A stretch of 42,108 nucleotides of DNA from Nitrospira sp. SB0677_bin_15 (GTDB taxonomy: Bacteria; Nitrospirota; Nitrospiria; Nitrospirales; UBA8639). Shown here in pieces: positions 32,793-39,576 of the stretch. Where the stretch lies: contig VYFB01000084.1 in NCBI GenBank assembly GCA_009842645.1, positions 1 through 42,108 on the forward strand. The letters run 5' to 3'. The notes below the pieces were generated by a model. That model ran no database searches, was not told the origin of the DNA, and saw nothing but the letters and a program-made list of their open reading frames with translations. Made by a program: the position numbers and the translations under genes. The first letter of the stretch is position 1. The number at the start of each line of letters is the position of its first letter.

Positions 32793-32866
32793 TACCCGAT
32801 CGCCTCGTCCCGCGGCCTGCTCCCCCATCCGTCATTCCCGCGAAAGCGGGAATCCAGAAGATGCAT
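32792..32866 (-). CDS. 24-codon micro-ORF bridging nuoB and nuoC
   Basis: The nuoB stop overlaps an ATG (TAATG at 32868-32864). This opens a 24-codon frame beginning [12 protein letters not shown], which runs through a REP hairpin and ends at TAA (32794-32792), itself overlapping the nuoC ATG in the same TAATG arrangement. The sequence GATCGGGTAATGCAT is present at both junctions. This looks like a duplicated nuoB/nuoC junction with a REP inserted between the copies. The peptide itself is probably of no use; reading it could keep ribosomes coupled from nuoB to nuoC. Confidence 0.5.
   Translation of the reverse strand: MHLLDSRFRGNDGWGSRPRDEAIG
32834..32853. repeat. REP hairpin between nuoB and nuoC
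   Basis: ATTCCCGC-GAAA-GCGGGAAT is a perfect 8-bp stem with a 4-base loop. The same stem occurs inside the priA-like gene at 35622-35641. It is flanked by direct copies of the nuoB/nuoC junction (32787-32820 and 32861-32894, partly diverged). Confidence 0.85.
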
Positions 32867-34993: not shown

Positions 34994-37360
34994 ATGCCGC
35001 GATCCTATGCCGACGTTGTCTTTCCTCCCAGGACCTCTCAAGCATTTACGTACCGTATTCCTCAATCATGGAATTCCCTGCCCAAAATAGGGCAATGGGT
35101 TCTGGCACCGTTCGGACCGCGCGTCAAGCCGGGTATTATTGTCTCTCTTGCCGTAAACGCGAAGCAACCCCTGATTGATCCCGACCGTATTCGCGAACTG
35201 TATCGCATCACCTCGGTCCACTGGGAGCCGGGCCCCAAGCTGGTTGCGTTGGCGGAATGGATGACCGACTATTACCTGGCTCCGGCGGGAACCTGCCTGG
35301 CGCTTGTCCAACCACCGGACATCCCCTTTCGCAGCAGCACACGTTGGACCATCACTCAGCAAGGGCAACAACGCCTGGAAATCGCCAGGACCGGCACTTC
35401 CACGCACACGCTCCTCACCGCGCTCGCCAAGCGTTCCAAGGGCTTGGCGCAATCAACCATTGAGACGCTGCTGGACAACCCCTCCACGGTCCTACAAAGG
35501 CTCAAGCGAAATAAGTGGATTCAGCCCAGGCAGGACTGGACCGAATTGCCGGTCCCAAGCAACCCCACACCGATATCCCTTGCAAAGGATTTTCTCGAAG
35601 CCTCGGAAGGGAAAACCCTGGATTCCCGCTTTCGCGGGAATGACGAAGGGGATAGCGGGAAAAACGGAGAGAGAGGCGGCAAAAACAAGAGTAGGGCCAG
35701 AAAGGACAGCACGCCTGCACGGGGCGTTCCTGAAATCCCGGAGGAAAACCCTGGCTTATTCTCCTGGCGGGGCCGTTTTCGGCAACACCTCGCAGCCAAA
35801 CGATTCGGTGAGTTGCTGCTCAGCGATTTGGAAGACCCGCCACCGCTGTTGGGCGACGTCATACAAGAAACAATGGCCCAGGGAAGGACGGTCCTGGTCA
35901 TTGCCCCGAATATCAACCGGTCGAGACGCCTGGTCTCCTATCTTCGACAGTCGGTGGGACAACCGATAGGCGAGTTTCACAGCGGCCATTCAGACAAGCA
36001 ACGTCTTCAACTTTGGGAAGCCATCAAACAGGGGAATTATTCCGTGATCGTGGGGACCAGATCCGCACTGTTCCTCCCTCTCCCTTCCCTGGGCTGCGTA
36101 TGGATCGAACGTGAAGGAGACAGCGCGTACAAGGAAGACCCGATTCCGCACTATCACGCCCGGGAGGTCGCACGAAAAAAAGCCGAGTTGGACGACGCCG
36201 TGCTCGTGCTGCACGCGCCTTACCCGACACTCGAGACCGTGCATCGCTTTGCCGAAGACGCCAGGTCTCCTCGGGTTTTCGCCGACAAGAGCACACCAAA
36301 GCCGGTTCAGGTGATCAGCCTGCAGGACTTGGCGTTCGGCACGATGTTCTCCGGCACCCTGCAGGACGGCATGGAGCAGGCCCTGCAGCAAGGTGGCGGA
36401 ATCGTGATCTACCATAATCGCAAAGGGTTTTCATCATCCATCACCTGTCGGGATTGCGGGACCGCGCCACAATGCCCGCGCTGCCGCATCCCGTTGGGTC
36501 TCCGGCAATCACAACTGCGGTGTTCCTATTGCGGCCAAGCCGAACCCATCCCGTCCGCGTGTCCGGCCTGTTCCGGCATTCGTTTGGAACCGGTGGGATT
36601 CGGCACCGAACGTCTTGAAGAAGAATTGCGCCGTTTGTACCCCAACGCCGCCATTGCCCGCTATGACGGCAACACGATACGGACCGAAGCCGCTGCGAAC
36701 CGTATCCGCGAGCAATTTTCACAGGGCAGGGTCCACGTGGTCGTCGGGACGGAACTGCTCTTCCAGGCGTCGCCGTTCACGCCGGTGAGATGCGTCGGCA
36801 TCCCCTATGCGGATGCCGGCCTGCACGTGCCGGATTTTCGATCGTCGGAACGCGTGTTTCACCACCTCCAACAGGCCGTGGATCTCGTCACCCCCGGCCT
36901 TTCGGGGTCCACGATCATTCAAACCCGCCTCCCTTCACACCCGGTCATGCATGCCATCAGCCAACAACAACCCAACCTCTTCTATGACCATGAATTGGCG
37001 TTTCGCCGGCTGGTGGGGTATCCACCCTTCGGGCAGCTCATCCAATTACACGTCTCAGGTCAAGATGCAACGGAAACCGAGGAGGCCGCAAAGCTATGGC
37101 ACCAGCATCTCACGGAACAACTCGCACGTATGATTGCACAAGGCGAGAGGCAGCAGGGCGAACAGGACGCGGTCCTGGGTCCCCTTGCCGCGTATGGGGC
37201 CCAACCACGAGGGCTCTCCCGCTATCATCTGCTAGTCAAAGTCGCAGATGGCACCGCCGGACGAACCCTCGTTCGACGGACACTCGAATTGATGACACAG
37301 AGGAAACCCCATCGACGCCTGAAATTCGGGGTGAACGTGGACCCTGTCGACGTGACGTAG
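34994..37360 (+). CDS. priA: PriA homologue with degenerate helicase motifs
   Basis: This 788-residue protein aligns with primosomal helicase PriA along its length. It has the N-terminal DNA-binding domain (YADVVFPPRTSQAFTYRIP, WVLAPFGPRVKPGIIVS) and GTRSALFLPLP. Eight zinc cysteines (C485, C488, C494, C497, C510, C513, C523, C526) and the C-terminal GYPPFGQLIQLHVSG are present. All ATPase motifs are altered: the Walker A GVTGSGKTE position reads SDLEDPPPL, DEEHD reads EREGD, GSATPS reads LHAPYP, KGxDF reads QASPF and QVAGRAGR reads QAVDLVTPG. The frame is intact, so this is not simple decay. It probably binds forks or primosome partners without unwinding. Residues about 205-235 are a low-complexity insertion containing a translated REP. 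Confidence 0.85.
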   Translation: MPRSYADVVFPPRTSQAFTYRIPQSWNSLPKIGQWVLAPFGPRVKPGIIVSLAVNAKQPLIDPDRIRELYRITSVHWEPGPKLVALAEWMTDYYLAPAGTCLALVQPPDIPFRSSTRWTITQQGQQRLEIARTGTSTHTLLTALAKRSKGLAQSTIETLLDNPSTVLQRLKRNKWIQPRQDWTELPVPSNPTPISLAKDFLEASEGKTLDSRFRGNDEGDSGKNGERGGKNKSRARKDSTPARGVPEIPEENPGLFSWRGRFRQHLAAKRFGELLLSDLEDPPPLLGDVIQETMAQGRTVLVIAPNINRSRRLVSYLRQSVGQPIGEFHSGHSDKQRLQLWEAIKQGNYSVIVGTRSALFLPLPSLGCVWIEREGDSAYKEDPIPHYHAREVARKKAELDDAVLVLHAPYPTLETVHRFAEDARSPRVFADKSTPKPVQVISLQDLAFGTMFSGTLQDGMEQALQQGGGIVIYHNRKGFSSSITCRDCGTAPQCPRCRIPLGLRQSQLRCSYCGQAEPIPSACPACSGIRLEPVGFGTERLEEELRRLYPNAAIARYDGNTIRTEAAANRIREQFSQGRVHVVVGTELLFQASPFTPVRCVGIPYADAGLHVPDFRSSERVFHHLQQAVDLVTPGLSGSTIIQTRLPSHPVMHAISQQQPNLFYDHELAFRRLVGYPPFGQLIQLHVSGQDATETEEAAKLWHQHLTEQLARMIAQGERQQGEQDAVLGPLAAYGAQPRGLSRYHLLVKVADGTAGRTLVRRTLELMTQRKPHRRLKFGVNVDPVDVT
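35622..35641. repeat. REP hairpin inside the priA-like coding sequence
   Basis: ATTCCCGC-TTTC-GCGGGAAT is the same palindrome as at 32834-32853. It is read in frame as part of LDSRFRGND around residue 210, in a charged linker (GKNGERGGKNKSRARK) that ordinary PriA proteins lack. It is therefore an in-frame insertion between the DNA-binding and helicase-like domains. Confidence 0.85.
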
Positions 37361-37407: not shown

Positions 37408-37836
37408 ATGCGCCTCTGGAGCATCCATCCGCAATATCTTGATCCCCGGGGCTTGGTGGCACTGTGGCGGGAAGGGTTGCTCGCTCAGGCGGTACTCAGG
37501 GGCGAAACCACTGGCTACACGCACCATCCCCAGTTGCTCCGATTTCGTAAGCAATCATCCCCGGTCGCGTGCATCGCCGAATATCTGCGGGCCGTTCACG
37601 CAGAATCAGTCAAGCGGGGATACCGATTCGACGCCAGAAAGATCGCCCGTGGCCGCACGTCCGGTAGGATCGACGTCCCGCGTGGCCAGATCGACTTCGA
37701 ATGGCAGCATCTCATGAAGAAGCTGGAAATACGCGCACCGAAATGGCGCGAGACGCTCATGACGGTAGCTTCCCCACTACCCCACCCTCTATTTCGGGTA
37801 AAGTCCGGTGGTGTCGCGGATTGGGAAAGGCCGTAA
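37408..37836 (+). CDS. Pyr_excise-family DNA glycosylase homologue (T4 endonuclease V-like)
   Basis: This 142-residue protein matches the pyrimidine-dimer DNA glycosylase family: MRLWSIHPQYLDPRGLVALWREGLLAQAVLRG, followed by HHPQLLRF and HAESVKRGYRFD. The glutamate of the WREG motif corresponds to the catalytic Glu23 of T4 endonuclease V. The N-terminal catalytic threonine of the T4 enzyme is replaced by arginine, as in many bacterial homologues, so the activity may differ. It lies 47 bp after the priA-like gene in the same direction and may be co-transcribed with it. Confidence 0.82.
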   Translation: MRLWSIHPQYLDPRGLVALWREGLLAQAVLRGETTGYTHHPQLLRFRKQSSPVACIAEYLRAVHAESVKRGYRFDARKIARGRTSGRIDVPRGQIDFEWQHLMKKLEIRAPKWRETLMTVASPLPHPLFRVKSGGVADWERP

Positions 37837-37995: not shown

Positions 37996-38577
37996 ATGAC
38001 TAACTCCATACTGAAACGGTGGGACATCACGGTCGAGGAACTCACCCAAGTGGTTGATCAGAACCCAAGCATCAGGGGAATGCTGCTCGGCTATCTGGCG
38101 GAGGTGAAGTTGGAAAAATTATGGCTCAGACGTACGGGGATTTCTGACGTATCAAAGCACGACGATCATGACAGGAAAAAGAAAGGCGACCGTGTAGTTG
38201 CTTACAAAGGCAGGGAGTTCATCTTCGAATCAAAATCTCTACAGACCAATACCATACGAAAAACAGACGAGGGTTGGGTTGGCAAAACCCAAGTCGATGC
38301 GAGTGACAGACGCGAAGTCGTTCTTCCCGATGGGACGAGAGTCAATACAACCTGTTTACTTCGTAACGAATTTCATATTCTGGCAGTCAACGTTTTTTCC
38401 TTCGAAGACAAATGGCGATTTGTCTTTGCAAAAAACAGCGACCTCCCGTCCTCAAAATACAAAGGCTATACCGAGTATCAACGGAGTCATTTGCTTGCCA
38501 CTCTCGTGACAGTTCATTGGCCGCCCATACCGCCGTTCTATGAGGAACCCTTTACTTTGATGAACGAGATGCTTTAG
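37996..38577 (+). CDS. Probable type II restriction endonuclease (PD-(D/E)xK)
   Basis: This 193-residue protein has a nuclease-like core: a helix with [12 protein letters not shown] (33-44), then [20 protein letters not shown], in which D65, E78 and K80 form a D...ExK site. The remainder ([26 protein letters not shown]) fits strand-rich restriction enzymes that distinguish a substrate. I recognise no specific family. It is convergent with a DNA methyltransferase and their 3' ends overlap by 26 bp, which supports a restriction-modification pair. The preceding 159 bp is AT-richer and shows no gene. Confidence 0.68.
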
Positions 38578-39334
38578 CAAATCGCATTTGCGATGCCTTC
38601 TTGCCCTTCGGTCTTTTTACAAAGACAAGAAAGTATGAATGGTTCTTTCTGGCGTGCACCTGATTGATAACCCTGCTCATTCCAGGTTTATTGGGCCGAA
38701 CGACAATAAACAAATCTTTACAGAAGAATCCGATGGTGTCGTAGGCGTTGATGATTTCCACGTGGGTAAGATTTTGCCTGTTCGCGCTCACTTCATCCTG
38801 ACACTTGACGATAAATATTCCTCCATCCTTTAGAACGCGGTGAGCCTCTTTGCCGCCTTCCTTGTAAATCTCTAAAACGGCCTCGTGCCATTTTCCGCCG
38901 TTAGGTTGAGGGACCTCGTCACCATTCGAATAATGCTCTCTAAACGTGTTGTGTGTCCCGTCACCTGCTTTCGTGGTATTCCCTTTCCTGTAAAACCCTT
39001 CCATGTAAGGCGGGTCGAAGACTATCGCGTCAAATGAACTGTTTTTGTATGGGAGTTTTCGGCAATCTATCCCATCCGCAATATCGGACGGGGAAAAATC
39101 GTATTGACTCGTATCGACATTTTTCCAAAAGACTCCTTTACCATACGTCACATCCGCAATTTTTGCTCCATTCGTAACATGAAGCTTCAATACCTTTGGG
39201 AAAATGTCTGAATTATTTCCGACATACGAAGAGAAGATAAGGTCTGAGGTCGCTACGCCATTCGGACTTCTTCGTCCTGAAGGCGTATATCGTTCGGTCA
39301 ATTCAAAAGGCATTTCAACTTGTTTCGTATTCAT
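38552..39334 (-). CDS. DNA methyltransferase (N4/N6 type)
   Basis: This 260-residue enzyme contains the SAM-binding segment [11 protein letters not shown] (in place of a usual D-P-F-x-G-x-G) and the catalytic FDPPYMEGF motif near residue 110. An [16 protein letters not shown] strand later in the sequence is typical of N4-cytosine/N6-adenine methyltransferases. The ATG at 39334 is used; a GTG directly before it overlaps the upstream stop by one base. It is convergent with the endonuclease and follows the ribbon-helix-helix gene without a gap, forming a compact restriction-modification module. Confidence 0.82.
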
Positions 39335-39336
39335 CA

Positions 39337-39576
39337 CTACTCGATATTTCCGAATTGCTCTTTCAGAAGTTCCCTTATCGCATCTGCCATTTTAATGCCT
39401 TGTCGTGCGCATCCTGCCTTGATATTGGCATGTAGAGAAGCTGGAACGTCAATCGTCAGACGTTTCATTTCCCCAGGATTTACTCCGAACACAGGAGACT
39501 CTTCACGCACCACCCATCCCCGATTACCACTATCGGAGACAGGTTTACGAGATTTGTTTTTTGAATCGTATTTCAT
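39337..39576 (-). CDS. Small ribbon-helix-helix protein, possible module regulator
   Basis: This 79-residue protein has a flexible, charged N-terminus (1-35) and a C-terminal ribbon-helix-helix pattern: [39 protein letters not shown]. This resembles ParG-like and antitoxin-like DNA-binding proteins. Its stop codon overlaps a possible start of the methyltransferase gene. Like the RHH gene ahead of the SacI-type operon at 17504, it may regulate restriction-modification expression. It could also be a solitary antitoxin-like protein. Confidence 0.7.

What the first reader, a model, noticed from the sequence alone, without database searches (positions are those of the whole stretch)
34994..37360. 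A PriA with all helicase motifs lost but zinc site and frame intact
Every NTP-binding or hydrolysis motif is replaced (Walker A to SDLEDPPPL, DEEHD to EREGD, GSATPS to LHAPYP, QVAGRAGR to QAVDLVTPG), while the eight zinc cysteines, the DNA-binding domain and the C-terminal domain are kept over 788 codons. Actinobacterial PriA proteins are known to lack these motifs; this seems to be a parallel case in another phylum. Replication restart here may rely on a structural PriA with another helicase, or this is a second paralogue with a new job.
Basis: partly seen in the sequence, partly recalled or inferred. Interest (0 to 1): 0.76.

Follow-up and report, generated by a model that had tools for sequence, protein, structure and literature searches.

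The report
Order-wide motorless PriA in Nitrospirales
The only copy of the replication-restart protein PriA in this bacterium has lost every part needed to burn ATP yet is kept under selection, and the same is true of its whole order and, on the best trees separately, of a second lineage in the same phylum, so restart there probably uses PriA as a scaffold and not as a motor.

Summary
The 788-codon ORF at 34994-37360 (+) is a PriA (TIGR00595, 360 bits, cut-off 230) without Walker A, Walker B, motif III or motif VI, but with the 3'-DNA-binding domain, all eight zinc cysteines and the C-terminal domain. It is the only PriA found in a 99% complete genome and is under purifying selection (dN/dS 0.21-0.29 against ten relatives).

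It is not peculiar to this genome. All 78 rows readable at motif I from Nitrospirales and three related families of its class lack Walker A, and so do 31 of 31 rows of a second group elsewhere in the phylum. Other phylum members keep it (56 of 57). Best trees place the two groups apart, but a single origin is not rejected (AU p 0.11 and 0.14). Largely the same ATP-site columns are lost in both.

Most likely this is a PriA pseudohelicase, a kind shown biochemically for Deinococcus radiodurans: a fork-binding, DnaB-loading scaffold. It is a new phylum for a known kind, with deeper motif erosion. The first group also lacks PcrA/UvrD (0 of 91 genomes, against 21 of 25 canonical-PriA genomes of the class). 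Function is inferred; structure prediction failed.

The parts
34994..37360 (+). priA, 788 codons plus stop; PriA without helicase motifs
   Evidence: only PriA over cut-off in G000
35015..35314 (+). 3' DNA-binding domain (residues 8-107), kept
   Evidence: Pfam PF17764, E 4.4e-15
35573..35707 (+). 45-residue in-frame insertion (residues 194-238) between the N-terminal domains and helicase lobe 1; in 3 of the 11 aligned genus rows
   Evidence: alignment A1; dN/dS above 1 on few sites with L035 and L044
35621..35643 (+). REP-like palindrome inside the insertion, encoding DSRFRGND
   Evidence: 52 copies with up to 2 mismatches in the own genome, 0 in the control pattern
35822..35848 (+). former Walker A (motif I), residues 277-285 SDLEDPPPL
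36107..36121 (+). former Walker B (motif II), residues 372-376 EREGD; the third acidic residue (E374) of DEEHD is kept
36212..36229 (+). former motif III, residues 407-412 HAPYPT
36446..36571 (+). zinc-binding region, residues 485-526, all eight cysteines kept
   Evidence: lowest dN/dS of the regions in 6 of 10 comparisons
36872..36898 (+). former motif VI, residues 627-635 QAVDLVTPG
37025..37345 (+). PriA C-terminal domain (residues 678-784), kept
   Evidence: Pfam PF18074, E 1.4e-10

Best explanation
This is the organism's only PriA and it is a pseudohelicase: a structural replication-restart protein whose ATP motor was lost in an ancestor of Nitrospirales and its closest class relatives. 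Shown here: the motifs for binding and hydrolysing ATP are gone, the DNA-binding, zinc and C-terminal parts are kept, the gene is single copy, and it is under purifying selection. Inferred: it still recognises abandoned forks with the 3'-binding domain and the other DNA-contacting domains, holds lagging-strand ssDNA, and helps recruit DnaB together with the DciA loader. Any unwinding of a double-stranded lagging arm must be done by another enzyme; RecG and one Rep/PcrA-like SF1 helicase with intact motifs are the candidates in this genome.
For: Motif loss and domain retention. Single copy. Purifying selection: whole-gene dN/dS 0.21-0.29, lobe 2C 0.12-0.21. Order-wide conservation of the ATP-less state: 0 of 78 readable group A rows have Walker A, 0 of 78 have GRxGR, 78 of 78 have eight cysteines. 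Loss is aimed at ATP contacts: of 91 columns that are at least 95% one residue in canonical PriA, group A lost 23 and kept 48; in the separate group B 18 of the same columns are lost. Loader context: DnaB, DciA, RecG, SF1 helicase with AGAGSGKT; the IstB/DnaC profile gave only weak, mostly partial hits. Precedent: D. radiodurans PriA has no ATPase or unwinding activity, binds forks, and shows evidence of interacting with DnaB (PMC4504706; abstract, introduction, part of results, passages). [quoted passage not shown] coli (PMC10175261, passages).
Against: No biochemistry. The structure prediction from an 11-row alignment failed (mean pLDDT 40), so a folded helicase core is inferred from sequence homology only. 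Pseudo-PriA branches are long, which could mean relaxed constraint on parts of the core. DnaB- or DciA-contacting residues were not identified. PriB, DnaT and PriC were not searched for.
Confidence: 0.8

Rival explanations
1. The protein has left replication restart and has a new job that uses its DNA-binding and zinc parts; restart runs without PriA.
For: Motor lost; divergence is high; a second 3'-5' helicase, PcrA/UvrD, is also missing from the same group, so fork repair may be rewired.
Against: Residues kept in groups A and B are ones that canonical PriA keeps: zinc cysteines, DFRxxER, PP, GP, DP. Single-copy inheritance. PriA with a dead motor still works in E. coli (PMC10175261, passage) and seems to in Deinococcus (PMC4504706).
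Confidence: 0.08
2. It still binds or hydrolyses ATP through an unrecognised pocket.
For: The third acidic residue of DEEHD (E374) is kept in 99% of group A and 100% of group B rows; 12 of 79 group A rows still have the DE pair.
Against: K230, D320/E321 and both motif VI arginines are replaced; no P-loop elsewhere in the frame; the glutamine at the Q-motif-like position is lost too.
Confidence: 0.05
3. History rival: one ancestral loss followed by gene transfer between classes, instead of two separate losses.
For: The AU test does not reject one clade of all pseudo-PriA (p 0.11; p 0.144 on 31 rows). Many rows of both groups share a HAP-like string at the former P-loop.
Against: Best trees of 79, 67 and 31 rows all put the groups apart, each next to different canonical rows. 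Long-branch pull would favour joining them, not parting them. The early branches f6 and f8 of group A have other strings at the P-loop. Canonical PriA is found in the same class as group A.
Confidence: 0.3
4. It is a decaying pseudogene.
For: All ATP motifs are gone and a REP-like element sits in the frame.
Against: Frame open in all relatives matched; dN/dS 0.21-0.29; eight cysteines in 78 of 78 group A rows.
Confidence: 0.01

Closest known systems
Deinococcus radiodurans PriA pseudohelicase (PMC4504706)
   Same: PriA family protein without a working Walker A/B; DNA-binding parts kept. A DciA profile match was found in control genomes of the same phylum, Thermus composti and Deinobacterium chartae.
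   Different: There the Walker A lysine is replaced by arginine and motifs I and II are poor matches (paper, introduction). Here motifs I, II, III and VI are erased, over a whole order and more. Different phylum. No assay here.
Canonical PriA helicase (E. coli; structure 4nl4)
   Same: Domain order, zinc region, 3' DNA-binding domain, C-terminal domain.
   Different: No ATP-binding or hydrolysis residues.
Actinobacterial-type PriA (NCBIfam PRK14873 models; the actinobacterial label is recalled)
   Same: Recalled to lack helicase motifs; not confirmed by any paper I could search.
   Different: The window protein scores 51-134 bits on the five PRK14873 models, far below their cut-offs, against 360 on TIGR00595.

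Membership tests
PriA protein family | profile match over the curated cut-off | tested here: met
   TIGR00595 360.1 bits, cut-off 230.35; the eight finer PRK05580 equivalog models listed with it stay under their own cut-offs
PriA protein family | 3' DNA-binding domain and PriA C-terminal domain | tested here: met
   PF17764 55.7 bits, PF18074 42.3 bits, both over the gathering score
PriA protein family | eight zinc-binding cysteines | tested here: met
PriA helicase (active enzyme) | Walker A, Walker B, motif III, motif VI residues | tested here: not met
PriA pseudohelicase (Deinococcus type) | PriA homologue with catalytic lysine of Walker A replaced | tested here: met
   K230 of E. coli aligns with P282
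PriA pseudohelicase (Deinococcus type) | no ATPase and no unwinding in vitro | not testable with these tools
   needs purified protein
PriA pseudohelicase (Deinococcus type) | fork and ssDNA binding, contact with DnaB | not testable with these tools
   needs purified protein
PRK14873 PriA | profile match over cut-off | tested here: not met
   50.6-133.6 bits against cut-offs of 812-1147

The most novel reading that the evidence does not exclude
Replication restart in the phylum was de-motorised twice independently, with the same ATP contacts erased and the same scaffold residues kept. In the group that holds Nitrospirales this went together with loss of PcrA/UvrD, so fork clearing moved to a different 3'-5' helicase or became unnecessary with DciA-type loading. 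PriA is then primarily a fork-reading scaffold and its helicase a dispensable add-on in these bacteria.
Probability: 0.35. Interest if true: 0.65.

Novelty: new member of a known kind. Interest (0 to 1): 0.47.

Why it matters
It shows that losing the PriA motor is not a single oddity of Deinococcus-Thermus. It is a stable state of a large, environmentally important order (the Nitrospirales) and of a second group in the same phylum. Comparing what is kept with what is lost separates the scaffold residues from the motor residues of PriA. It also offers a natural test of what PriA is for: these bacteria restart replication, if they do, without its helicase, and group A without PcrA/UvrD as well.

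Tried and rejected
A deeper alignment would have needed rows outside the stated rule and was not sent.

Second paralogue: rejected; the other TIGR00595 hits in the genome are under the cut-off. One is RecG, one lies in a 1215-aa frame (likely Mfd, not checked), one in a 676-aa frame (not identified).

Compensation by a gained helicase: not found. The SF1 helicase of Nitrospirales (L201) groups, on a 24-row tree, with one that canonical relatives also have beside PcrA. PcrA loss does not track PriA motor loss in group B: 40 of 40 group B genomes match PcrA at E under 1e-180. So a general rule 'PriA motor lost with PcrA' is rejected; it holds for group A only and counts as one event at most.

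Two losses against one: not settled. AU p 0.11 and 0.144. A third test, on 67 rows, did not finish.

Hypergeometric overlap of lost columns (18 shared, 6.3 expected, p 2e-9) is descriptive only: columns are not independent and many belong to the same motifs.

Rows dropped or not read: L069, L070 and L072 carry no group label (fragments); L035-L044 were left out of the 171-row set as repeats of genus rows already in it, and L001 and L093 as duplicates. Matched genomes that were not fetched were not read for motifs; for them only the start of the profile match is known. In the 79-row tree, rows under 570 aa were left out. PcrA absence inside the order was tested for families f1 and f3 only.

Full report
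OBSERVATION. It is a PriA: Pfam finds the 3' DNA-binding domain (residues 8-107) and the PriA C-terminal domain (678-784); NCBIfam TIGR00595 scores 360 bits over a cut-off of 230; phmmer aligns residues 265-786 with solved PriA structures, best 4nl4. An alignment with E. coli K-12 PriA puts K230 opposite P282, D320 and E321 opposite E372 and R373, and two motif VI arginines opposite L631 and P634. All eight zinc cysteines are there.

SINGLE COPY. The own genome (156 contigs, 2.55 Mb, 99.01% complete) has one TIGR00595 match over the cut-off; three weaker ones are under it, one being RecG. In the class survey 108 of 116 genomes had a match and 106 of these had exactly one. The exceptions are G071, whose gene is split over contigs, and G074, which has an intact copy plus a second, stop-broken one.

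HOW WIDE. I read 171 PriA rows, drawn from the relatives search (57 of 59 genomes matched), the class search and the phylum search (136 of 148 matched). Group A is every family read in the order (codes f1-f4; record titles of near genomes say Nitrospira or Nitrospirales) plus f6, f8 and f10 of the same class. It has 80 rows from 77 genomes: Walker A in 0 of 78 readable rows, GRxGR in 0 of 78, the DE pair of Walker B in 12 of 79. Group B is families f19, f25, f27 and f29-f35, in the phylum but not in the window's class: Walker A 0 of 31, GRxGR 0 of 31, DE 5 of 31. The remaining 57 labelled rows (f5, f7, f9, f11-f18, f20-f24, f26, f28, f36) have Walker A in 56 of 57 (the miss, L090, looks frame-shifted at that point), and DE and GRxGR in 57 of 57. 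Three fragments carry no label. Eight cysteines, in rows without gaps there: 78 of 78, 31 of 31 and 57 of 57. The DE pair lingers in some group A families, in all four f4 rows and the single f6 and f10 rows, which branch early; Walker A and motif VI are gone in all.

WHAT IS LOST AND WHAT IS KEPT. In canonical rows 91 columns are at least 95% one residue (55 canonical, 76 group A and 31 group B rows of sufficient length). Group A keeps 48 of them in at least 80% of rows and has lost 23 in at least 80%; group B keeps 44 and lost 25; 18 are lost in both and 39 kept in both. Lost in both: the TGSGKT residues, a glutamine upstream that sits where a Q motif would be (label recalled), the catalytic E of Walker B, T of GSATPS, and Q/G/R residues of motif VI. 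The first D of Walker B and the G and A of GSATPS are lost in group B and kept in about a third of group A. Kept in both: the eight cysteines, Y20, G33, Y94 and G99 of the N-terminal domain, GxR (354-356), the third acid of DEEHD, R390, G478, most of PDFRxxER, PP (677-678), GP (729-730) and DP (783-784). So the erosion is aimed at ATP contacts. I did not map the kept residues onto the fork structure.

SELECTION. Against ten relatives at 60-89% identity the whole-gene dN/dS (Nei-Gojobori, own script) is 0.21-0.29; the zinc region is 0.04-0.32 and lobe 2C 0.12-0.21. The insertion region is above 1 with the two relatives that carry it, on few sites. dS is near saturation for the most distant row (L043, 1.26).

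HISTORY. A tree of 79 rows with the motif columns removed gives groups A and B as one side of a branch each (SH-aLRT 88 and 100), apart from each other and next to different canonical rows. Smaller sets without the longest branches agree (99 and 100). The AU test does not reject one clade (p 0.11; 0.144). Canonical PriA in the same class as group A means that, under vertical descent, group A lost the motor within the class. Two losses are favoured, not shown.

MECHANISM. In D. radiodurans a PriA with a replaced Walker lysine has no measurable ATPase and negligible unwinding, binds forks with an affinity between those of two active PriAs, and shows evidence of contact with DnaB (PMC4504706; abstract, introduction, part of results and passages read). 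In E. [quoted passage not shown] The window protein keeps the domains involved. The genome has DnaB and DciA, and a DnaC-type loader was not seen beyond weak, mostly partial IstB-profile hits; DciA is present in 65 of 65 good phylum genomes, and 92 of 100 in all. I therefore read it as a fork-recognising scaffold that helps DnaB-DciA load. This last step is inference. PriB, DnaT and PriC were not searched for.

A COMPANION LOSS. The PcrA/UvrD profile TIGR01073 gives no match better than 6e-159 in 91 group A genomes (82 in the order, of which 2 had none at 1e-60; 9 in f6, f8, f10), while 18 of the 25 canonical-PriA-family genomes of the class have a full-length match under 1e-250 and 3 more a strong partial one; the 4 without are 72, 82, 82 and 94% complete. 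The one SF1 helicase of this kind in the own genome has intact motifs and belongs with a helicase that canonical relatives have beside PcrA. Group B keeps PcrA in 40 of 40. So the link is one event in one group, worth a test and no more.

LIMITS. No structure, no biochemistry, single-gene trees, and MAG-type assemblies in part. Actinobacterial PriA as a precedent is recalled and was not found in the papers searched. No paper holding PriA, Nitrospira, helicase and replication restart together, or Nitrospirota, UvrD and PriA together, was found, and the ten listed of the 109 papers have no mention of Nitrospira; the library leaves out most subscription journals.

Noticed in passing
G000:C12:2039-3931 (L201) and class survey: Nitrospirales (f1, f3) and families f6, f8, f10 lack a PcrA/UvrD match (0 of 91 genomes under 1e-160), though canonical-PriA relatives in the class have it in 21 of 25. 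What then serves mismatch and excision repair is unknown.
   Followed up: partly
window 35621-35643 (+) and 32832-32854 (-): A REP-like palindrome (GATTCCCGCTTTCGCGGGAATGA) sits in frame inside priA and again at the nuo genes; 52 copies with up to 2 mismatches in the genome, none in the control pattern. Three of the 11 genus rows carry the in-frame insertion at the same site.
   Followed up: partly
window 37996-38577 (+) and 38552-39337 (-): A 193-aa ORF without a convincing Pfam, PADLOC or PDB match faces a DNA methylase of the N6_N4_Mtase family, overlapping at the 3' ends: possibly a restriction-modification pair with an unrecognised nuclease.
   Followed up: partly
window 37408-37836 (+): A pyrimidine-dimer DNA glycosylase (PF03013) follows priA directly.
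   Followed up: no
L105 (G074:C53:7000-10000): A second, stop-broken pseudo-PriA copy in a genome of family f8 that also has an intact one.
   Followed up: no
genomes G098, G073, G155: No TIGR00595 match at the E-values used although 95-99% complete: contig breaks or true absence of PriA.
   Followed up: no
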